Assembly (NCBI RefSeq): GCF_002234675.1
Contig: NC_019869.2
Coordinates: 10,650,015 to 10,714,014 of the forward strand
DNA from: Oryzias latipes
Taxonomy: Eukaryota > Chordata > Actinopteri > Beloniformes > Adrianichthyidae
Length of the DNA stretch: 64,000 bases
Reading direction: 5' to 3'
Shown: positions 11,401-50,640 of the stretch, one piece after another
Layout of the letters: every line of letters begins with the position of its first letter
Position numbering within the stretch: position 1 is the first letter of the stretch
The notes under the pieces: generated by a model
What the model saw: the letters and a program-made list of their open reading frames with translations, nothing else
Database searches by the model: none
Told to the model about the DNA's origin: nothing
Position numbers and translations under genes: made by a program

Positions 11401-12446
11401 GCACATGGCTTAATCTGCACATGTATGTAAAGGTCCCATTCATGAAGGATACTGTATGACAGTTTCTGAGCATGGTCTTCAAGTCTTTTTTTAAAGCAGA
11501 GGTTGTTTTGTTTTAGCAAGACAACACAAAACAATATTTCTAACATGTTACATCATTGTGACTGTTGTAAAACCTGAGTGACCAGCTAATTAGACTGCAA
11601 TCCAGTCCTGCAATAATGGGAAAACATTATGTGCATTCTTTAAGACTTGAATTGAAGACTATCATAACAGTAAAAAATGATTAAGATGTGCTAATACACA
11701 TTTAAATAATTTACCGACTTGAAAGAATTTCTTATTGTGAATATAGAATGTAGAATTAAAATTTTTGACACAGTATAGTAGACTCAAAAATGATCTTGAA
11801 GGTCTCACTGTGTTGCTTTTTGTTTTCTAAGTTTGGTCACCAGTGCTTGATATGAGCCACTGGACACTAAATGGTTCTTGCTGTTTGGTTGGAGGCATGG
11901 GGGCAAGGAGTTTGTCTGTGAGGGCTGTTGTTGAGCTGGTGTCTTTGTGGAAGCCTAGTGATATCTATGAACTAGTCTCATTGTTTGCGCCTGGCATGCA
12001 CATGCACACGTTCACACACACAAACTTGTACAACTATCCTTACGAGGACATTGCAACGAGAATGGTTTTTATGCATTTTAACTTTAACCAGTTCATATCC
12101 AGCTCTAAATTATTAATATTGAATCACCGCTTATCTCTAATTTTACAGAGGAGTCAAATCAACCTTTTTGTTTACCTCATTACCACTTTCGACTGGTGCT
12201 AAAGTCCGTAATCATCTTTTAATTTTTAGCTCTGTACCTTCCAAAACACATTGTCTCTTAAAGTTTCATGGTAGAGCTCCTTTTTTTATAACAACATAAC
12301 TATCTTTTAAAAATAAAAAAACATCTGCTCTTGTGGCAATATCAAAATAAAGGCTTGTTGCAAGTGTTATGTGGTTTTGATTGGGTTATGTGGTTTTTGG
12401 TCAAGTTCTGAGTTGCACTCAGTCATACTGTTTCCCAGTACAACAT

Positions 12447-13011
12447 CAGCCCTGCAGTCTCTCAAAAAACCACTGTGGCGTCATCAAAACATCTCGCGCC
12501 GGATCTACAACCTAGCTGTACTTCCCATTCTGCTTTATGGTTCTGAGACATGGCCCTTAAATAAGAGCTTAGCCGCAAGAATAGATGACTTCGACAGCCG
12601 GGCTCTCAGGACCATTGAGAACATCAAGTGGCCCCAACATGTCTCTGTCAAAGCCTTAAGAACTCAAACCTGCCAGCCCCAAGCCTCTTGCCTTGCTGCG
12701 CAACGACGCATCAGATGGTTCGGCCATGTTCTCCGTTCTCCCTCTTACCATCCGACGCGGGCCATCTTGGAGTTTAACGCAGGGGCTGCGGGCTGGAAAC
12801 GACCTCGAGGCAAACCCCGTACTCGGTGAACAGATGTTATTGCAGGGGATGTTAAACCTTATGGGGTTGCTATGAAGGATACTGAGCTTCTGGCACAAGA
12901 CCGGAAAGCTTGGGAGACCCTTGTTTTTTTGGTCGGCTCTACGCACCGGGAAGGGGCATCGCCCCCCCCACAAGAGCCTTGATGAGTCCAACATGATCCC
13001 CAGCTGCTGTC
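12447..13011 (+). pseudogene. 3' fragment of a LINE reverse transcriptase ORF
   Basis: The frame from about 12447 to 12829 reads like the C-terminal tail of a non-LTR retrotransposon polyprotein: 'LYGSETWPLNKS', then 'RRIRWFGHVLRSP' and 'GWKRPRGKPRTR'. A TGA stop follows at 12827-12829, yet the same frame continues beyond it with recognisable LINE sequence ('LLAQDRKAWETLV'). The stop is therefore probably a nonsense mutation inside the old ORF. Everything upstream of the tail (endonuclease, RT core) is missing, as in a 5'-truncated insertion. The Gmr1-like LTR element is inserted at 13011/13012, and the LINE 3' end may continue after 18950. Clade not assigned. Confidence 0.7.
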
Positions 13012-13563
13012 TGTTACATGCAGGGGTTTTTCATGTCTTTCTTTTGTTTCTTTCCTCTGCATGTGCTTAACGAGCTGAGTGAAGACACCTGGTGGAGACC
13101 TGACCAGCTGCACAATCAGGCCCCAAAGCCAGCCACCAGGCCTGCATATAAGCTCCTGTGAACCACTGGAGGAGGAAGCTCTTCCTGGATCACTACCAGA
13201 TGAATGTTTTGAGCTTGCTGTGTTGGAGATTGTGGGAGGTTTGTGGACAGGTAAGACAGGGTACCCTGTACACCTCATGCAGCTTGCGTTCTGTTAGACA
13301 CACTAGGTAAGTTGGTTGGTGCCACCCCTTGTACGTTTTATCATCACTTTATAGATAAGGCAGTGAGTCTTTTCTTTTCTTGTTTTAGTTTTAGCGCTTT
13401 GATAGCCAGGCTGAGTTTTGTTCTATTAATTTCATTCCTTTGGCCCAACCTTGGTCCCTACCTCCCCATCTCCACGTCCAATAAAATCTTTAAAAGTTCC
13501 TCATTGTGTGTGTTTATGTTACGTACACCTCCGCCCTAGACCTGTTCGTTTGTGAACGTAATA
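13012..13563 (+). repeat. 5' LTR of the Gmr1-like element
   Basis: Direct repeat of 18394-18945 (offset 5382) with no difference that I could see. It begins TGTTAC and ends GTAATA, so the outer ends are an imperfect inverted repeat and the 3' terminus is TA rather than the usual CA. A TATA-like 'catataag' lies at 13145-13152 and a poly(A) signal AATAAA at 13480-13485, consistent with promoter and 3'-end processing functions. Open frames inside the LTR recur identically in the 3' copy and are not genes. Confidence 0.92.
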
Positions 13564-13567
13564 TAAT

Positions 13568-13585
13568 TGGGGGCTCGTCCGGGAT
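13568..13585 (+). other. Primer-binding site, tRNA-Pro type
   Basis: TGGGGGCTCGTCCGGGAT lies 4 bases after the 5' LTR end. It is the standard complement of the tRNA-Pro 3' end, the primer type long known from murine gammaretroviruses. All 18 positions agree with that signal as I remember it. It would prime minus-strand DNA synthesis. Confidence 0.88.
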
Positions 13586-13626
13586 ACTGTTAACCTGTGT
13601 TTGACATTTACGTTTGTTTTCACACA

Positions 13627-16600
13627 ATGTTTGATTTACAGGACTTTCTGGATCACCCTAGTCATCTTAAAGTTGACTTGTGTCGCAAGGATGATCTTTT
13701 GCTTATTGCTGCTCATTTTGGCATTAGTGTTTCTAAGCAAAGCCTGAAAAGAGAAATTAAAAACCATGTGGTGGGGAAGTTAATTCAGATTGGTGTTCTG
13801 GGAGAGCCTATGGATGCTGGCCATGCTGTTCTGGGAGAGGCTGTTTCTCCTGGTGTTTCTGTTTCAGATGTGAAGGACCATATCACACCCATTCGTCCAC
13901 CAGAGGGTGTTCCTGCAATGCCTGTCACCTTGCCCCGCTTTGATGCATCCTCTCCTCATGTTTCTGGTTCCGGTGCCAAACTTAAAGTACGGCTAACTCG
14001 ACTCCATTTGGAAGCAGAAGAGAAGGAGAGGGTGAGAAAAGCAGAGTACGACCTACGTCTCCAGGTGAAAAAATTAGAAATTGAAGCCGAAAAAGAGATT
14101 AGGCTCCGCCAGATAGAACTCGAAGCCATGAAAATTTCCTCAGGACAGTTTCAACCCTCACTATCTGAAAAATCGGGGGACGTTTTAACAAAGCACAGTT
14201 TTGATGTCAGTAGAAATATTGCACTTGTACCAGCATTCAGGGAGTCAGAAGTTGACTCGTACTTCAATGCATTTGAAAGGGTTGCTAGTGCACTAGACTG
14301 GCCAAAAGACATGTGGCCTATTTTGCTCTATTGCAAATTGGTTGGAAAGGCCCAAGAAGTTGTGTCTGCTTTGTCTTTACAGGAAAGCTTGGATTACAGT
14401 GTCCTCAAAGAAGCTATACTACGTGCATATGAACTAGTGCCTGAGGCATACAGGCAGAGATATCGGAACCACAAAAAGTCCAGTGAGCAGACTTTTGTGG
14501 AGTTTGCACGTGAAAAGGGGAATCTCTTTGACAAGTGGTGTGCTTCTAGTAATGTCAAAGATGACTTTGAAGCACTACGTCAGCTGGTCTTGCTAGAAGA
14601 CTTCAAGAGAGCTTTGCCAGAAAAGCTTGTGGTGTTCTTAAATGAACAAAAAGTGTCTTCTCTGTCTAAGGCGGCTGTCCTAGCTGACGAGTTTGTGTTG
14701 ACACACAAAAATGTATTTGGGGCACTTCACTCTCAAAGCCACTCTGATCCTCTATTAACTCGCCTTAGCCATTCAGATAAACCAAAGCCACCATTGTCAC
14801 CCCCTCGCTCATGTTTTTACTGCCACAAAAGGGGACATCTTATTGCTGACTGCTATGCCCTGAAGAAGAAGTCAACCTCTTCTAGTCAACCAAAGGGAAT
14901 GGGATTGATGCAGGCTACATGTTCTGATCTCCCACGTCAACAGGAGGGTATCAACATGGACCCCTGTTTCAAGCCATTTGTCTCAACTGGTGTTGTGTCT
15001 CTTACTGATGACACGGCTGTCCAGTGTCCTGTGAGAATCTTAAGAGACACTGGAGGGTCACAGTCTATAGTCCGTGACGGTGTTCTGCCCTTAACAGAGG
15101 CGTCATCATGTGGTTCCTTTGTCATGATTCAGGGAATTGGAGCAAACCTGGTTTCTGCTCCTTTGCACACGATCTACCTGAAGTCATCACTTGTAACCGG
15201 AATGGTTAAAGTAGCAGTTCTTTCAGCTCTGCCTATCAACGGCGTTGACCTCATTTTAGGTAATGATTTGGCTGGGGGGAAAGTCACCCCAGTCCCTGAG
15301 TTACTCGAAAGCCCTAGCATGGATGATGTGCCAGATAAATTGATGGATGATGTTCTTTTTCCATCATGCGTTGTGACCAGGGCCCAATCCAAGAAGGGTG
15401 AAATTGACCTGTCTGACTCATTTCTTGCCACAGATGAGTCGTCTGACGGAGAAGAGCGCACAAAGGAAGTGAAACAAGTTGTGCCTCCTCTCACCAGCAT
15501 TGCCGATCCAAATCCTGCTAGTCGTAAAGACTTTATCATGGCTCAAAGAAATGATGTAACCCTTTCCAGGTGTTTGTCTTCTGTTGTCTTGAAGGAGGAG
15601 GCTAGGAGAAAAACAACTGCTTACTTCCTTGACAATAATCTGCTGATGCGACGATGGTCAGATGGATTGGAAACCGGAGGCAGGGATGTGTATCAGGTTG
15701 TGGTGCCCACAGATTACCGTAACAAGGTTCTGTCCTTGGCCCATGACCACCCCTGGTCTGGACACTTGGGGGTTAACAAGACCTATAACAGGATCCTGAG
15801 GCATTTTTTCTGGCCTGGCCTCAGGGCAGATGTTGTAAGGTTTTGTAAAACATGTCATAAATGTCAGGTGGCAGGTAAACCAAATCAGGTGATACGACCT
15901 GCTCCACTCCATCCCATCCCTGCAATAGGAGAGCCATTCGGAAGAGTAATAATAGATTGTGTGGGGCCATTGCCAAAAACAAAAATGGGGAACCAATTCC
16001 TATTAACTATAATGTGTGCTGCTACTAGGTTTCCTGAGGCCATCCCTTTGAGAAAGATTACAGCCCCAGTAATCACCAAAGCATTGGTGAAATTTTTTAC
16101 AGTGTTCGGACTCCCAACAGAAATCCAATCGGATCAAGGAACGAATTTTAAATCAAGAACCTTTGCCCGAGCATTAGAGTGTCTTGGGATCAAACACGTG
16201 ACTTCCAGCCCATATCACCCTGAGAGTCAGGGAGCTCTGGAGCGGTTTCATCAGACTCTTAAGGCTATGTTACGGAAGCACTGTTATGACTCAGAGAAGA
16301 CATGGGATGAAAGCATTCCCTTTGTTTTGTTTGCTGCTCGTGAGGCTGTACAAGACTCTCTTGGATTCAGTCCTTCAGAGTTGGTGTTTGGACATGACGT
16401 CAGGGGTCCACTTAAAATGTTAAAAGAAACTCTTGTTTCTCAGACAAAGGAACTTAAGAGCGTTCCAGAGTATGTTGCCAAACTAAGGGCCAGACTCCAG
16501 CAGGCTTGTTCTCTGGCAAGGAACAACTTAGTTTTCTCTCAGGAGAAGATGAAGCGACATTACGATCAGCAGGCCATAGTAAGGTCATTTGAGTGCGGTG

Positions 16601-18333
16601 ACAAGGTATTGGTTTTTTTGCCCAAACCTGGATCAGCCTTGTCTACCAAGTTTTCTGGACCTTACATTGTGGAGAAGAAGTTAAGTGCAACAGATTACCT
16701 CATTCGAACCCCTGAAAGGCGTCGCAGTACAAGAGTGTGTCATGTTAACATGCTCAAACCGTACTACACTCGTGAGATGCAAAATCAGGAGCAATCTCAA
16801 GATGCCAACACAGATAGTTTGCCTGTGGCTTTAGCCTTGACTGCATCTCCACCTGAAGACAATGACTTTTTGTTGTCCGACATTGGAACTCAGGGGATTA
16901 AATTGTGTAATAGTGACATAATGTCTAACTTGCCTTTCCACCTAGCTCACCTATCAGAAAGTCAGTTTAGAGATTTAGAGGCATTGATTAGGGACTTTCA
17001 ATGTCTTTTTGGTGATGTACCCTCTCAGACAACATATATTGAACATGACATTGTTCTTACTACCGCTTCCCCAATCAAGCAGAATGCATACCGGATTAAC
17101 CCGGTAAAGAGAAGCCTGATGAGAGAAGAGGTGGAGTACCTCTTGCAGCATGGTTTAGCCATTCCAAGTAGTAGTCCTTGGAGCTCCCCTTGTCTTTTGG
17201 AGGTTAAAAAAAATGGAAGCCCTCGGTTCTGTACCGATTATCGTAAAGTGAACGCGATTACAGTACCAGATGCCCATCCGTTACCACTTATTGATGACTG
17301 TATAGATGAGATCGGTCCCGCAAAATTTGTGACCAAGCTGGATATGCTAAAAGGGTATTGGCAGGTTCCTCTGACTAAGCGTGCTTCTGATATTTCAGCT
17401 TTTGTTACACCTGACTACTTTCTCCAGTATACAGTCATGCCTTTCGGGATGTGCAACGCACCTGCAACCTTCCAAAGGCTGGTGAGTAAAGTACTGGGGG
17501 ATGTTAGAAATTGTAGGTCATATCTTGATGACATTGTGGTGTACTCGGATGACTGGAACAGCCATGTGTCATCTCTGAGGAAAGTCTTCACGCGTTTGTC
17601 AGCAGCCTCATTAACGTTGAACCTCGCAAAATGTGAGTTTGGGAAAGGCACAGTCCTTTACCTTGGACAACAGGTTGGCAGTGGGAAGATATGTCCAGCT
17701 AATACTAAGGTGCTGGCCATCAAGGACTTTCCAATACCTACCACCAGGAGAGAACTCCGTCGCTTTCTGGGGATGGCTGGTTATTATCGTCGGTTCTGTA
17801 GGAACTTTTCTTCTGTTGCTGCACCCTTAACATCGATGACTAGTCCTTCTGTGCCTTTTGTGTGGTCTAACGAATGCCAGCAGGCTTTCAACAACCTCAA
17901 AGGCATCCTGTGCTGCAATCCTGTCTTGTCTGCTCCCGACTCTTCCAGGCCTTTCAAGCTTGAAGTTGACGCTAGTTCTGTGGGAGCAGGTGCGGTCCTA
18001 TTGCAAGAAGATGAGGACAACATTGACCATCCTGTTGCGTACTTCTCCCGCAAGTTCAACAAACACCAACTACACTATTCAACTATAGAAAAGGAGACAC
18101 TTGCACTGTTGTTAGCCCTGCAACACTTCGAAGTGTATTTAGGCTCTAGTTGTGTACCGATAAAGGTGTTTACAGACCACAACCCTTTAGTTTTTCTCTC
18201 CCAAATGTACAACAACAACCAGCGTCTTATGAGGTGGTCCCTAATTTGTCAAGACTACAACTTGGACATACAACATAAAAAGGGCTCTGAAAATGTGATG
18301 GCTGATGCTTTGTCCAGAGCAGTCCTGGAATGA
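13627..18333 (+). CDS. Gag-Pol polyprotein of a Gmr1-like retrotransposon (PR-IN-RT-RH order)
   Basis: A 1568-codon frame with no stop or frameshift. An upstream GTG at 13597 is in frame, but the ATG at 13627 is the better start. Gag has a charged coiled-coil-like segment at about residues 120-170, a capsid C-terminal segment resembling a SCAN domain (about 273-360), and a CX2CX4HX4C zinc knuckle at 396-409. Protease has DTGG at 474 and a later 'ILGNDLAGG' flap. Integrase has an HHCC zinc module from about 706 to 746, DD35E residues D777, D836 and E872, and a GPY/F-type module near 1009. RT spans about 1150-1330 with YLDD at 1299-1302. RNase H follows, with D1448 and 'ENVMADALSR' near the C-terminus. 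All catalytic residues I could check are present. Gag and Pol share one frame, so Pol need not arise by frameshift here; how their ratio is controlled is unknown. Confidence 0.93.
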   Translation: MFDLQDFLDHPSHLKVDLCRKDDLLLIAAHFGISVSKQSLKREIKNHVVGKLIQIGVLGEPMDAGHAVLGEAVSPGVSVSDVKDHITPIRPPEGVPAMPVTLPRFDASSPHVSGSGAKLKVRLTRLHLEAEEKERVRKAEYDLRLQVKKLEIEAEKEIRLRQIELEAMKISSGQFQPSLSEKSGDVLTKHSFDVSRNIALVPAFRESEVDSYFNAFERVASALDWPKDMWPILLYCKLVGKAQEVVSALSLQESLDYSVLKEAILRAYELVPEAYRQRYRNHKKSSEQTFVEFAREKGNLFDKWCASSNVKDDFEALRQLVLLEDFKRALPEKLVVFLNEQKVSSLSKAAVLADEFVLTHKNVFGALHSQSHSDPLLTRLSHSDKPKPPLSPPRSCFYCHKRGHLIADCYALKKKSTSSSQPKGMGLMQATCSDLPRQQEGINMDPCFKPFVSTGVVSLTDDTAVQCPVRILRDTGGSQSIVRDGVLPLTEASSCGSFVMIQGIGANLVSAPLHTIYLKSSLVTGMVKVAVLSALPINGVDLILGNDLAGGKVTPVPELLESPSMDDVPDKLMDDVLFPSCVVTRAQSKKGEIDLSDSFLATDESSDGEERTKEVKQVVPPLTSIADPNPASRKDFIMAQRNDVTLSRCLSSVVLKEEARRKTTAYFLDNNLLMRRWSDGLETGGRDVYQVVVPTDYRNKVLSLAHDHPWSGHLGVNKTYNRILRHFFWPGLRADVVRFCKTCHKCQVAGKPNQVIRPAPLHPIPAIGEPFGRVIIDCVGPLPKTKMGNQFLLTIMCAATRFPEAIPLRKITAPVITKALVKFFTVFGLPTEIQSDQGTNFKSRTFARALECLGIKHVTSSPYHPESQGALERFHQTLKAMLRKHCYDSEKTWDESIPFVLFAAREAVQDSLGFSPSELVFGHDVRGPLKMLKETLVSQTKELKSVPEYVAKLRARLQQACSLARNNLVFSQEKMKRHYDQQAIVRSFECGDKVLVFLPKPGSALSTKFSGPYIVEKKLSATDYLIRTPERRRSTRVCHVNMLKPYYTREMQNQEQSQDANTDSLPVALALTASPPEDNDFLLSDIGTQGIKLCNSDIMSNLPFHLAHLSESQFRDLEALIRDFQCLFGDVPSQTTYIEHDIVLTTASPIKQNAYRINPVKRSLMREEVEYLLQHGLAIPSSSPWSSPCLLEVKKNGSPRFCTDYRKVNAITVPDAHPLPLIDDCIDEIGPAKFVTKLDMLKGYWQVPLTKRASDISAFVTPDYFLQYTVMPFGMCNAPATFQRLVSKVLGDVRNCRSYLDDIVVYSDDWNSHVSSLRKVFTRLSAASLTLNLAKCEFGKGTVLYLGQQVGSGKICPANTKVLAIKDFPIPTTRRELRRFLGMAGYYRRFCRNFSSVAAPLTSMTSPSVPFVWSNECQQAFNNLKGILCCNPVLSAPDSSRPFKLEVDASSVGAGAVLLQEDEDNIDHPVAYFSRKFNKHQLHYSTIEKETLALLLALQHFEVYLGSSCVPIKVFTDHNPLVFLSQMYNNNQRLMRWSLICQDYNLDIQHKKGSENVMADALSRAVLE

Positions 18334-18384
18334 GAATTCTTTTTTTTCCCTCTTGCATTGTACCAAACATGTTTGGTCTTGTAT

Positions 18385-18393
18385 GGGTGGGGG
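18385..18393 (+). other. Candidate polypurine tract
   Basis: The guanine-rich run gggtggggg directly abuts the 3' LTR, where the plus-strand primer should lie. It is short and interrupted by one T, so the exact primer is uncertain. Confidence 0.55.
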
Positions 18394-18945
18394 TGTTACA
18401 TGCAGGGGTTTTTCATGTCTTTCTTTTGTTTCTTTCCTCTGCATGTGCTTAACGAGCTGAGTGAAGACACCTGGTGGAGACCTGACCAGCTGCACAATCA
18501 GGCCCCAAAGCCAGCCACCAGGCCTGCATATAAGCTCCTGTGAACCACTGGAGGAGGAAGCTCTTCCTGGATCACTACCAGATGAATGTTTTGAGCTTGC
18601 TGTGTTGGAGATTGTGGGAGGTTTGTGGACAGGTAAGACAGGGTACCCTGTACACCTCATGCAGCTTGCGTTCTGTTAGACACACTAGGTAAGTTGGTTG
18701 GTGCCACCCCTTGTACGTTTTATCATCACTTTATAGATAAGGCAGTGAGTCTTTTCTTTTCTTGTTTTAGTTTTAGCGCTTTGATAGCCAGGCTGAGTTT
18801 TGTTCTATTAATTTCATTCCTTTGGCCCAACCTTGGTCCCTACCTCCCCATCTCCACGTCCAATAAAATCTTTAAAAGTTCCTCATTGTGTGTGTTTATG
18901 TTACGTACACCTCCGCCCTAGACCTGTTCGTTTGTGAACGTAATA
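18394..18945 (+). repeat. 3' LTR of the Gmr1-like element
   Basis: Same length and, by eye, same sequence as the 5' LTR. AATAAA at 18862-18867 would serve as the poly(A) signal of the genomic RNA. It is followed by the second copy of the CTGTC target duplication. Confidence 0.92.
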
Positions 18946-18950
18946 CTGTC

Positions 18951-31341: not shown

Positions 31342-31469
31342 ATAAGATAAGATAAGATAAGATAAGATAAGATAAGATAAGATAAGATAAGATAAGATAA
31401 GATAAGATAAGATAAGATAAGATAAGATAAGATAAGATAAGATAAGATAAGATAAGATAAGATAAGATA

Positions 31470-31501
<32 letters not shown>

Positions 31502-31509
31502 ATAAGATA
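31342..31509. repeat. Pentanucleotide microsatellite (GATAA)n
   Basis: About 33 tandem copies of a 5-base unit, nearly perfect, with one altered unit (gatag) at about 31496-31500. The minus strand reads as an open Leu-Ser-Tyr repeat, a by-product of a 5-base unit lacking stop codons. The unit matches the TTATC tail of fish retroposons (compare 38819-38875), so it may have grown from such a tail. Confidence 0.95.
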
Positions 31510-43419: not shown

Positions 43420-43783
43420 CGTAGCGCTCTGATGACGTTGGCCTGGATGACCAATCGGCAAGCACTGCCCTTTGGAGACAAACCATTTTACTTGTAGTGT
43501 CTGCATCAAGTCTGGAAGCAAGGGCTCAATTTTAACAGAATCTACCTTAAAAACACTCCCTTAACTTATGCCTACCTTCCAAGATTCAGTTTGCGAATAT
43601 CACGGGACAAGGTGGAGGGGAGGTGGGTGGGGGCATTAAAGACGCGTCTGGGAAAATCGTGTGTTAACAGGAGAACATCTGCTCGCGGAGGAGAGGGGGA
43701 GAGACAAGAGCACAGCGAGAGAGAGGAGCCCGATTTGGTCTTGAGAGAGAGGGGGGTGAGTGCTCTCAAGGCAGAAAAATTCG
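43420..43783 (+). promoter_or_regulatory. dlx6a: dlx6a proximal promoter and 5' UTR (candidate)
   Basis: A CRE-like TGACGTT at about 43433 and a CCAAT box at 43451-43455 lie 330-350 bases before the ATG. A purine-rich GAGA-type stretch at 43690-43760 likely belongs to the 5' UTR. No convincing TATA box; the start site is not determined. Confidence 0.4.
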
Positions 43784-45267
43784 ATGATGACCATGACTAC
43801 GATGGCTGACGGTCTGGAGACTCAGGACTCCTCCAAGTCGGCTTTCATGGAGTTTGGGCAGCAGTCGCACTCACAGCAGAGCTCCCCGTCGATGGCCGGC
43901 GGCCACTACCCGCTGCACTGTCTTCACTCCGGCTCACACGCGCACCACCAGCACGACAACAGCCCCTATCCCGGGAGCAACACCTACAACAGGTCGTTAC
44001 CCTACCCTTACGTGAGCCATCCGCACCACAGCCCCTACTTGCCATCCTATCACAACAACACGGGCGGACAGACAAGGTTAGATGGCGCAGGTAAGCAACC
44101 CCATTTTGCGCGTCCATCCCCGGCGCATAACACCACCGGATCAAAGCTTTCTCTTTGCCAATATCGCTGTCATATCCACGTCGCAGCACAACCGCCCCAG
44201 ATTTGGAAGTGATCTTCGCAAACGCTGAAGAAAAGTGTGCGTAAATCAATGGCACCGGATGTTTGGAAATCCAGACTTCTTTTTTAACAGCCTTGCTGTT
44301 TAGCAACCCTAAAACTTGTACACAAAAAAAATCTCGATATGTGATCGTCTCTGCCGTGCAATCCTCACCAACTACCTCTGAAAATTAGGCAGCCGCACGC
44401 CTTGAATGTTGTAATTAGCATTTAATTGACATATCATTACCGGCAATATTCGAAATATGACAACGTAAGAGGACTGTAGCTGCAAGGGGCTTGAAATGCA
44501 GCACTTGATTGAACATTTCCACACTTTATTTTATTTTTTGTCCTTTCTATTTTCCACAGATTTTGCTCTCACAGAGATTTTTCGCTCAGCTTGAAACGTT
44601 GCATTTCGCTCGTGCGCAAAAAAGGAGCGCAGTCTGACTATACGCCGCTTTTGATAAATAACCTTGTTTGTTTTTGTTGCAGAGCAGCAGAAAACGACAG
44701 TGATCGAAAATGGGGAGATTCGTTTTAACGGAAAAGGCAAGAAAATCCGCAAACCACGGACAATTTATTCCAGTTTGCAGCTTCAAGCACTGAACCATCG
44801 TTTCCAGCAAACACAGTACCTCGCTTTACCGGAGCGCGCCGAGCTGGCAGCCTCTCTGGGACTGACCCAAACGCAGGTATGGAGGGAGAGGCATGTCCTG
44901 CTTTGCGTTCATGCATTTTTCATCATCGATTTAATCGATTGAAATCACAATTGCACGATATTTTGTCTCTTTTTTTTCATTTTATTCTTTCTAAATGTAA
45001 CCAATCATCCGTTTTTTTTTCCTGTAGGTAAAGATTTGGTTCCAGAATAAAAGGTCAAAGTTCAAGAAGCTGCTGAAACAAGGCAGCAACCCCCACGAGA
45101 GTGACCCCATCCAGGGCTCCATGTCTTTATCCCCGCGCTCCCCGACTATTCCCCCAATTTGGGACGTCTCTGCCTCTTCCAAAGGAGTTAACATGCCGGC
45201 CAACAGCTACATGCCCGGTTACTCTCACTGGTATTCCTCCCCACATCAAGACTCAATGCAGAGATAG
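43784..45267 (+). CDS. dlx6a: Homeobox protein Dlx6a
   Basis: Three exons: 43784-44090, 44683-44876 and 45028-45267, giving 246 residues. Splices are GT-AG with phases 1 and 0; the second cuts the homeodomain between Q44 and V45, the Dlx family position. The start '[12 protein letters not shown]' is the Dlx6 signature, so I chose the first of the clustered ATGs. Residues 1-102 are rich in H, S, Y and P; the homeodomain is at 124-183 with '[10 protein letters not shown]' in helix 3; the tail holds '[14 protein letters not shown]'. Dlx6 is a nuclear transcription factor that binds TAATT sites and acts with Dlx5 in jaw, fin, ear and forebrain development. The protein ends at MQR without the PQMM end I recall for mammals; this may be usual in fish. 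It converges with dlx5a, 3.8 kb away. Confidence 0.96.
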
Positions 45268-46149
45268 GCAGACTTGTCAAGAGGTTTCCTGATCTACAAG
45301 CTGCACATTTTGACTGCACGCAGAGACTGGATGCTGCAGGAGCGATGGCCGCGCTCCTGCTCTGCTGCAGGATCAGCCACAGCCCCCACAAACGAGAGGA
45401 CTTACCCCTTTTTTTGATTTTTTTTATAGATGGCTGTCCCGTGGGCTTGCATCTGTTAAGCTTTCATTCATGTCAACATCTGAACATTAATATACCAAAT
45501 ATTAACACTGACGTTTTTGACCTATGGAGCAAAGACTGCGTAATGCTCTCCGTGCGCTCTGGTTACCTTTTTTTGGTGGGCACCTGGCTGCCTTATACCT
45601 TTTTTTCCCTCTCCGACATGCAAGAGTATGATCTGTCTGTAAATATGATCTGCGATTTTAGCTGTACATACACTTTTTATGTTTTGTCAGATTGAGTAAA
45701 CCGTGCCTAAAACATGCGCCTGCTGTTGCGTGATTTTCCCCTCGAAAAACAGTATTCATTTTCCAGCCTTTTTTATGCCTCTTATTGGGCCAACATCACA
45801 TCAGAGCAGGCCTACTTCCCGCATGCAAGCTTATATCAGACAATGTGAGCATAAGTTGATGACACATTGCTCAATGAAAGCCAGTTTTCATGAAACATTT
45901 CAAATAAACCCAGTGGGTGATGAAGATCTCTCACATTGGCCTGTATAGATTTATCAAATGAAGACCAAGCAGAGGAAATCAACTTACCATGTCTCCATTC
46001 ACCTCGGAAGACATTTGCTCCAGGTCCAGCTTATCTTGTCATTTCACTCTCAGCTATTAGAAGTATTGACAAAATGTTTTCTCCCTTCTCTCCGTCCTAA
46101 TGCGGGCGGTTAAATGCCAAGCTCCACGGGATCGATGCTGAACAAAGCA
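45268..46149 (+). other. dlx6a 3' UTR (likely) and downstream DNA
   Basis: AT- and T-rich, with no other gene. An AATAAA at 45903-45908 would give a 3' UTR of roughly 650 bases. Confidence 0.45.
45903..45908 (+). terminator. Candidate dlx6a poly(A) signal
   Basis: First canonical AATAAA that I noted after the dlx6a stop. Use is not proven. Confidence 0.4.
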
Positions 46150-46480
46150 GCCAGCTGCAGTGGCGTTCAATATGAAGGAGATATTTGGGACAATTTAAGG
46201 GGTTTTTATCCAAGTGAGGCTTTTTTTCCCCTTCCCCATTCTCATAAATGCAGGCATAATTAGGGTAAGTTTTTGATGTAGCCCGCTGATTACAGCGTTT
46301 TTACCGTCAAAGATAATTACCTGTAATTTTCTACCACTTTTAATACTAAAAGGCATCTTTATTTGGATTTGAGGTAGCACAGATGGAACAAAAGGGGAAA
46401 TTATTCCGTTATTCATATACAAATTGCTTAGGAGACTGAGCGTTCGGGATATTAGCTGAAATTAAATGACGCTTGAAAAA
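46150..46480. promoter_or_regulatory. Candidate dlx5a/dlx6a intergenic enhancer 1
   Basis: Between the convergent genes, where vertebrate Dlx5/6 loci carry the conserved enhancers I56i and I56ii. This unique-looking segment has TAATTA at 46257-46262 and 46314-46319, a TAATT just after it, and 'gaaattattccgttattcat' at the end. It has no coding frame. I cannot say which of the two known enhancers it corresponds to. Confidence 0.5.
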
Positions 46481-46672
46481 AAAAAAAGGGGGGGGGGGTG
46501 CAGCTGTCAAATCACTGATGCCCCACTGGTGTACATGCACCCCTGCTACCTGGGGCCCCCGTCAGGCTGGGGGTTGGGGTGGGGGGTATCCTTTTAAGGA
46601 GACCCAAACAGGACTAAACATCATAAAGACTGCAGAAAGCTTTGATGCGCCTTGTTAAAAAGTTTCCAATTT

Positions 46673-46854
<182 letters not shown>

Positions 46855-47214
46855 GGTGCAGAGGATGGGGGTGTGGTTGCAGGAAAGGATCGTGTCAGAC
46901 TGCATCTCCCATCATTTCACCCAAGATCACTAGATTTACGCATCACTCTTTGCAGTCCTATAACACAAATTATTCAGCCAAATCACCATATATTTTCATT
47001 AACCTGGCTTCAGGGAACATCTACTTTATCCAAATCTTAATCCCTTACAGGAAAGTTAAAGCACAACCTCTAAAATGGTCCAAGTGTTAGTCTCATCCTT
47101 ACCTTTTTCCTGCTTCTCCAACACAGAATATAACCAAAAAGCGCCAGCACGGCTTTCTTGCTGATGGTTAAATAAGCAAATCCAGGTGGGAAAGTGTTTG
47201 CACACCGCAGTAAG

Positions 47215-47480
47215 CTCTTATATATTGCCTGCAAAATTAGCTGTTATTACTGTCACTGTTTAGTGATGGCGAGCTTGGAAAAAAAAAAGCCCTCTGCAAT
47301 CAAGAACCGAGCGCATCTTTGCAAATTATAGGTAATTGTCAATGTCCAGATTATGATAATGGAGGCCCTAATCCTGGAGAATAATTATTGTGGAGTGTTA
47401 CAGTTGAAGCTGTCCAGTAAAGCTAACCGTCATTATTTAGACTCGATTTGCAAAACAGGGGGAAACTAGCTGAGTGGAAA
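47215..47480. promoter_or_regulatory. Candidate dlx5a/dlx6a intergenic enhancer 2
   Basis: Non-repetitive, with 'gctgttattactg', TAATT at 47333-47337 in 'ggtaattgtc', and 'ataattattg' at 47381-47390 close to 'gtccagattatgataatgg'. Its density of homeodomain cores and its position fit the second of the two intergenic Dlx5/6 enhancers known in vertebrates. No coding frame. Confidence 0.5.
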
Positions 47481-49024
47481 ATATTCGGTTGGAAATAAAC
47501 GGGGGGCTCTCTCAATATAATGGCACTACCAGTGTTTGTGTGATGGGGTGCGTGTGTGTAGTCGTGAGGAGGGATGGAGGGAGACATATGGTAGCAAACA
47601 AATGTTTTAAATCGTTTGCGCATGAGATGTAAATTTCTGGGGTGACCTGCTCGCATTGTAATGACGGGGCTGGAGTTTACACTGCAGCATAAATTGGCTG
47701 ACGACAACAAAAGGCGCTGTGGGGGGAGCGATGGATGAGGAGGGGGGGGGGGGGGTTGCAGCTGAAGAAAAGTGAGGTCTGTTGCATTTTATCATCATCA
47801 CGCCCGTCCGCATGCGCGCAGAGGGGCCACTCTGTCAGGTGGAAATGGTGACATGGGTCAGTGTGCGGGTCAGCAGAAGCAGCGTGACTGAACCTACGTG
47901 ATTCATAAAGACAGGCAGGACATGTTTTTTTTTTTTTTTTGCTTCTATATTTTTTTTCCTTTTACGCACAACGCGTTATCTTCCCCTCGAATATGTTCTG
48001 GTAAATTTAATTAGTTTCAAATCCCCAGCGCATTTTTGAAGTGGAAACGCGCCTTTGGAGCGTCACTACAAACACAAAGGAAAATGTACCCCAACCTTTC
48101 TCTGCCTCGTTCTTTCTACCTTTTCAATTTACCTGAAAGGTGGGCTGCGGCCGCAGGAGTGGCAGAGCTGTGGAGCCGGTCTACCCCCACAGGAATGCGG
48201 ATTGTCTCAGATGTGTGGGCCGCCCCCCTCGCCTCTTTCTGCCATTCAAAGCTGCTAATTGTAGGGGAGGCAGAGCGAGAACGCCAGCAGACTGTCTGCT
48301 GTGAAAAGCAGGCTTTTTTCTATGGAGACGAGCGGGAAAGCGCCCAGTCACAGGAATGTATTTAAAAATGTTTTTTTTATATGGGCTATATCATCAACAA
48401 CAATAATAATAATGATAATAAACATAGGAAAAATACAAACCAACAAAATGTCCCCAATAGCCTATTCTTTTATTAAGCTGAATAAAATGCCACGATTCTT
48501 GCAAGAAAAGTGGAGCATTTGTCCTTATTTTATTTTCTAAAATGTATTCACATCTGTAAATGCATTCTCTTTCTTGGTAACATTTATTTCACCTTGATTG
48601 AAGGAGATGAGACGAAATTATAATGCAAAAGTAAAAAGATTTTTTTGTTTTTCTGCGAAAATTAGCAACAGTTAAGCCTTAGTGAGACAAAAAAAATGGG
48701 ATGTTAAAGACTGACGGCTCTATTCGGCTGTGATTTACAACCAACAAGAAGCGCAAGAGCATCATTGGTCTGAGTTTTACGTTTCCAGAGGCTGGAGCAG
48801 CAAAGTCACTGAAGGACACTGAAGCTTTCAAAGCACTGTCCATTTAAACGTTTAATAGACTTCCAAAATGCAATAAATTACATGCACACATTTACACATT
48901 TTACACGTTTCCTCTATGACTGTCATCAAATACATTGCATATTCCTCTGAAATGTGAACACAAGTCCAACAGAAGGAGAAGGGGAATATTTGAAATGAAC
49001 AACAGGATTTTCCCCCCATTTTTT
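47481..49024. other. Intergenic DNA and dlx5a 3' UTR (minus strand)
   Basis: Includes G- and T-runs at about 47740-47755 and 47925-47940 and no gene. A reverse-strand AATAAA at 48583-48588 would end a dlx5a 3' UTR of about 440 bases. Confidence 0.4.
48583..48588 (-). terminator. Candidate dlx5a poly(A) signal
   Basis: AATAAA on the minus strand, the first canonical signal that I noted downstream of the dlx5a stop. Use is not proven. Confidence 0.35.
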
Positions 49025-50381
<1,357 letters not shown>

Positions 50382-50640
50382 GCTTAAGTGAGGCAAAATG
50401 TGAGTTCTTCTTCTTTTTTTCTTTGAATTAATAAAAAAAAGGCAATCAGGACTCTCCAAGACTACACTGTCATTGTGCTAAGAGGCTCTCAGGCCGACGG
50501 GCTCTGCTAAAGACTGCAACCAACCCTGCAGCAAAGACTTGGTTAAATCCTAAATCGCGCTCTTACGCACTGCAGGGAGGATCTGGTTCCATTGGCCAGG
50601 GTGCGCGCACACACAGCTACACCCAATGTCCTCAGCCAGC
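50382..50640 (-). promoter_or_regulatory. dlx5a: dlx5a proximal promoter and 5' UTR (candidate)
   Basis: On the minus strand a CCAAT box lies at 50591-50595, about 210 bases before the ATG, next to a GC-rich 'gcgcgcaccctggccaatgg' segment. No clear TATA box. The transcription start is not determined. Confidence 0.4.

What the first reader, a model, noticed from the sequence alone, without database searches (positions are those of the whole stretch)
13012..18945. Complete, apparently recent Gmr1-type LTR retrotransposon with integrase before reverse transcriptase
Seen: two 552-bp LTRs without visible differences, 5-bp target duplication CTGTC, one unbroken 1568-codon gag-pol frame, and all checked catalytic residues present (DTG, DD35E, YLDD, RNase H D). 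Known: Ty3/gypsy elements normally carry IN after RNase H; the PR-IN-RT-RH order marks the Gmr1 lineage. Inference: this copy inserted recently and could be a source copy.
Basis: partly seen in the sequence, partly recalled or inferred. Interest (0 to 1): 0.8.

Follow-up and report, generated by a model that had tools for sequence, protein, structure and literature searches.

The report
Young intact Gmr1-type medaka retrotransposon
This is a complete, apparently very young jumping element of an already described fish family (Gmr1), lying near dlx genes in the genome of a medaka-like fish; it is a good example of a known thing, not a new kind of thing.

Summary
Two 552-bp LTRs (13012-13563, 18394-18945) are identical at 552 of 552 positions, flanked by CTGTC duplications, and enclose one open gag-pol frame of 1568 codons. 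The pol order is protease, integrase, RT, RNase H, with all checked motifs present (DD35E exact). Of the 120 best listed RT relatives, 118 have integrase sequence before RT. In RT-RNase H trees the sampled integrase-first rows fall on one side of a fully supported branch, though the other side is nearly all one pseudoscorpion genome. The closest relative is an Oryzias melastigma element (87%). Joined Dlx5a exons in the window match Oryzias latipes at 285 of 285 aligned residues, so the host is medaka or a very near relative. The primer site matches tRNA-Pro. Fish Gmr elements of similar size and single-frame layout are in print. New member of a known kind. Recent insertion is well supported; activity, copy number and polymorphism could not be tested, because the own-genome search did not complete (ten tries).

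The parts
13007..13011 (.). target-site duplication CTGTC, left copy
13012..13563 (+). 5' LTR, 552 bp, ends TGTTAC...GTAATA; one TATAA at 13147 and one AATAAA at 13480
   Evidence: promoter and poly(A) roles inferred
13568..13585 (+). primer-binding site TGGGGGCTCGTCCGGGAT (tRNA-Pro), 4 nt (TAAT) after the LTR
   Evidence: the same 18 nt named as tRNA-Pro primer site in PMC1769482 (passage)
13627..18333 (+). single gag-pol frame, 1568 codons plus stop
13627..13800 (+). Gag N-terminal helical domain (about 58 residues), no Pfam match
14440..14709 (+). SCAN domain, C-terminal half of the capsid
   Evidence: Pfam PF02023, 1.8e-13; structural matches to retroviral and Arc capsid C-lobes
14812..14853 (+). 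CCHC zinc knuckle
15037..15054 (+). protease active-site motif ILRDTG
   Evidence: motif only, no Pfam match
15703..16221 (+). integrase: H2C2 zinc domain and rve core with D-D-35-E
16657..16761 (+). integrase C-terminal domain with GPY motif
   Evidence: PF22938
17206..17676 (+). reverse transcriptase with YLDD at 17521
   Evidence: PF00078, 5e-30
17863..18258 (+). RNase H
   Evidence: PF17919 and PF17917
18385..18393 (+). purine-rich GGGTGGGGG (one T) next to the 3' LTR, likely plus-strand primer
   Evidence: role inferred
18394..18945 (+). 3' LTR, identical to the 5' LTR
18946..18950 (.). target-site duplication CTGTC, right copy

Best explanation
A complete, recently inserted Ty3/gypsy LTR retrotransposon of the Gmr1 lineage in a medaka (Oryzias latipes or very near kin) genome. 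Expected cycle, by homology: the LTR drives a genomic RNA; one Gag-Pol polyprotein is made and cut by the aspartic protease; Gag with a SCAN-type capsid and CCHC knuckle packs the RNA; reverse transcription is primed by tRNA-Pro; the integrase inserts the cDNA with a 5-bp stagger. Shown: LTRs, duplication, frame, motifs, domain order, relatives. Inferred: every step of the cycle, the age in years, and any present activity.
For: Identical LTRs, duplication and open frame; domain order and SCAN; DD35E and other motifs. Of the 120 listed best RT hits, 118 have integrase core or C-terminal domain before RT, and the other two (pseudoscorpion P0094, ryegrass P0106) are RT-first and only 40% and 39% identical; a stricter mapping showed integrase core then RT in 113 of 120 and RT alone in 5. 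RT-RNase H trees: integrase-first rows one side of a branch, SH-aLRT 100 (67 rows) and 100/100 with nine rows left out (58 rows); the O. melastigma element P0004 is sister with full support in both. tRNA-Pro primer site. Dlx5a 285 of 285 aligned residues identical to O. latipes. Pufferfish Gmr families in print with a single 1506-1634-aa frame and 337-518-bp LTRs (PMC11117352 table passage).
Against: Named reference elements (Gmr1 itself, Mag, CsRn1, V-clade) were not in the tree. Of its 32 integrase-last rows 31 come from one pseudoscorpion genome, and the tree is unrooted. No listed protein is closer than 87% in the RT region, so no second copy of this family was seen; the database is clustered at 90%, only the best 120 of 3994 hits were listed, and the own-genome search did not complete.
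Confidence: 0.95

Rival explanations
1. Older Gmr1 insertion whose LTRs were made identical by gene conversion, or collapsed to one sequence in assembly.
For: LTR identity alone cannot exclude it; no reads or other assemblies were available.
Against: The whole 1568-codon frame is also unbroken with every checked motif intact, and the 5-bp duplication is perfect.
Confidence: 0.07
2. An ordinary integrase-last gypsy element in which domains were rearranged at this one locus.
For: None found.
Against: 118 of 120 listed relatives show integrase sequence before RT, and the RT groups with the sampled ones.
Confidence: 0.01
3. A domesticated host gene derived from a Gmr1 element.
For: Intact frame; a SCAN-type capsid is thought to have been exapted in tetrapods (PMC4592553 passages).
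Against: Both LTRs, primer site and target duplication are intact, as in a fresh insertion, and no protein at 90% or more was listed.
Confidence: 0.01

Closest known systems
Gmr1 lineage of Ty3/gypsy (integrase before RT; known from Atlantic cod and other animals)
   Same: Integrase-first pol, gypsy-type RT/RNase H and integrase with GPY, SCAN-type capsid, single gag-pol frame
   Different: Another host and family: 69% identity in RT-RNase H to a cod protein (P0020)
Gmr1-Gmr4 families of pufferfish genomes (PMC11117352)
   Same: No env counted, one frame of 1506-1634 aa, LTRs 337-518 bp, their Gmr1 family peaks at insertion age 0 (passages)
   Different: This element is slightly shorter (5934 versus 6058-6465 bp) with a longer LTR (552 bp)
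Oryzias melastigma element P0004 ('Gypsy retrotransposon integrase-like protein 1')
   Same: Same order, sister in both trees, 87% in RT-RNase H
   Different: 13% different in that region; another species
Oryzias latipes element P0012
   Same: Same lineage and order
   Different: 73% identity, a separate family in the same host group
Ty1/copia elements
   Same: Integrase lies before RT
   Different: RT matches RVT_1 and the integrase C-terminus is gypsy type; the best named solved relative is Ty3-G Gag-Pol at 279 bits (7q5b)

Membership tests
Gmr1 lineage (Ty3/gypsy) | Integrase encoded upstream of RT and RNase H | tested here: met
   Pfam order; definition from passages of PMC2774666 and PMC8220671
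Gmr1 lineage (Ty3/gypsy) | RT groups with other integrase-first elements, apart from integrase-last ones | tested here: met
   31 of 32 integrase-last rows are from one species
Gmr1 lineage (Ty3/gypsy) | RT groups with the named reference element Gmr1 | tested here: inconclusive
   A Gadus morhua protein (P0020, 69%) lies among the integrase-first rows, but whether it is Gmr1 itself was not established
Gmr1 lineage (Ty3/gypsy) | SCAN-like C-terminal capsid | tested here: met
   PF02023 at 1.8e-13; homology described in PMC4592553 passages
Ty3/gypsy | Gypsy-type RT/RNase H and GPY integrase C-terminus | tested here: met
Ty1/copia | Copia-type RT (Pfam RVT_2, recalled) | tested here: not met
   Only RVT_1 was matched in the RT piece; best named solved match is Ty3-G at 7.5e-82, and no entry named Ty1 is among the 60 of 205 shown
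Active retrotransposon | Transcription and new insertions | not testable with these tools
   No RNA-seq or population genomes; own-genome search unanswered ten times

The most novel reading that the evidence does not exclude
The Gmr1 Gag is laid out like the Gag of the walleye epsilonretroviruses of fish (small helical head, long coiled coil, capsid, knuckle), by descent or exchange, rather than like a typical gypsy Gag. The N-terminal head, which has no Pfam match, would be a matrix-like domain shared with fish retroviruses.
Probability: 0.12. Interest if true: 0.45.

Novelty: new member of a known kind. Interest (0 to 1): 0.22.

Why it matters
It gives a clean, intact reference copy of an integrase-first gypsy family in a model fish, with the SCAN-type capsid from which tetrapod SCAN transcription factors are thought to derive, and a datable insertion about 25 kb upstream of the probable dlx6a that could be genotyped across medaka strains. 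It does not change what is known about the lineage.

Tried and rejected

Rows dropped: for the trees I used 34 of 111 usable integrase-first rows (112 mapped as integrase then RT, one too short; P0045 with an extra RT match and five RT-only rows not used) and 32 of 92 integrase-last rows (94 mapped, two failed the spacing limit). One search left out nine integrase-last rows, eight of the nine flagged as long and one other (P0127); flagged P0106 was kept. In the second protein search 27 of 119 new proteins did not map as RT-then-integrase at their start (10 of these begin with an integrase match); most listed proteins there are long multi-element predictions, and these 27 were not resolved.

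Full report
What is there. The element spans 13012-18945 (5934 bp). Its LTRs are identical at 552 of 552 positions and are bounded exactly, because the neighbouring bases differ on both sides. The 5-bp duplication CTGTC is perfect. The LTR begins TGTTAC and ends GTAATA, so it ends in TA and not the usual CA. A TATAA at 13147 and one AATAAA at 13480 are candidate promoter and poly(A) signals (roles inferred). The primer site TGGGGGCTCGTCCGGGAT starts 4 nt after the LTR. PMC1769482 names the same 18 nt as complementary to tRNA-Pro (passage), and a primer for human tRNA-Pro in PMC12217144 starts with it (passage). A purine-rich run GGGTGGGGG abuts the 3' LTR.

The frame. From the ATG at 13627 there are 1568 codons without a stop. 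Pfam finds SCAN, integrase H2C2, rve, integrase p58 C-terminal domain, RT and RNase H, in that order. The protease is recognised by its ILRDTG motif only; Pfam gave no protease match. The integrase has exactly 35 residues between the second Asp and the Glu. The best solved relatives of RT-RNase H are 4ol8 (2.5e-82, recalled as Ty3) and 7q5b (7.5e-82, named Ty3-G Gag-Pol), so the enzyme is gypsy type although the order resembles copia.

Relatives. A search with the RT-RNase H part gave 3994 hits among 7967 scored candidates, the best 120 listed. Mapping domain pieces on all 120 put the integrase core or its C-terminal domain before RT in 118, and RT first in two distant ones, P0094 and P0106. 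A stricter mapping with core domains only gave integrase then RT in 113, RT alone in 5, and RT first in the same 2. A SCAN-region match was mapped in 90 of the 120. The nearest is Oryzias melastigma P0004 at 87%; O. latipes P0012 is 73%, Gadus morhua P0020 69%, Danio rerio P0043 65%. A second search from P0094 supplied integrase-last rows; nearly all 120 listed are from Cordylochernes scorpioides.

Tree. With 67 rows (window, 34 integrase-first, 32 integrase-last) the integrase-first rows form one side of a branch with SH-aLRT 100. With nine integrase-last rows left out (58 rows) the support is 100/100. The window and P0004 are sisters with full support in both. Limits: unrooted; 31 of 32 integrase-last rows from one species; no named references; one search warned of long branches meeting, and P0106 is still long.

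Host. The joined Dlx5a exons match O. latipes DLX-5 isoform X2 at 285 of 285 aligned residues; the only gap is the isoform's 10-residue extension, which the window also encodes at the end of its first exon. dlx5a lies on the minus strand at 49.0-50.4 kb. A second homeobox gene on the plus strand, with its first exon near 43.8 kb and homeodomain at 44.75 kb, I take for dlx6a from recall of its protein; its first exon had no Pfam match. The element is then about 25 kb upstream of dlx6a in the same orientation. No effect on these genes is shown.

Age. Zero differences in 552 bp gives an upper 95% bound of about 3 in 552. With recalled vertebrate rates of 2.5e-9 to 1e-8 per site per year this is at most about 0.3 to 1.1 million years, barring gene conversion.

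Comparison and verdict. Integrase before RT is the published mark of Gmr1 (PMC2774666 passage; PMC8220671 passages). Pufferfish Gmr families have similar size and a single frame, with young copies (PMC11117352 passages). This is a new member of a known kind.

Noticed in passing
13564-13567 and 18385-18393: Four bases (TAAT) separate the 5' LTR from the primer site while the purine run directly abuts the 3' LTR, so the two cDNA ends before integration may be unequal and trimmed asymmetrically by the integrase.
   Followed up: no
13627-13800: Gag head domain is modelled confidently as helices with an alignment (block pLDDT 95-98) but has no Pfam match; a BLASTP match to the 97-residue N-terminal piece was found in 78 of 120 listed relatives.
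   Followed up: partly
12317-12829: Open stretch whose letters look like the C-terminal end of a LINE-type protein (recalled resemblance; no Pfam match), just upstream of the element.
   Followed up: partly
43760-50477: Probable dlx6a (+; recalled from its letters and homeodomain) and dlx5a (-; by search) facing each other; dlx5a exon 1 also encodes the 10-residue extension of the O. latipes isoform X2.
   Followed up: partly
46673-46854: Perfect GATA tetranucleotide array, 45.5 copies at 100% match, between the two homeobox genes.
   Followed up: no
31342-31509: ATAAG array, 33.6 copies at 98% match.
   Followed up: no
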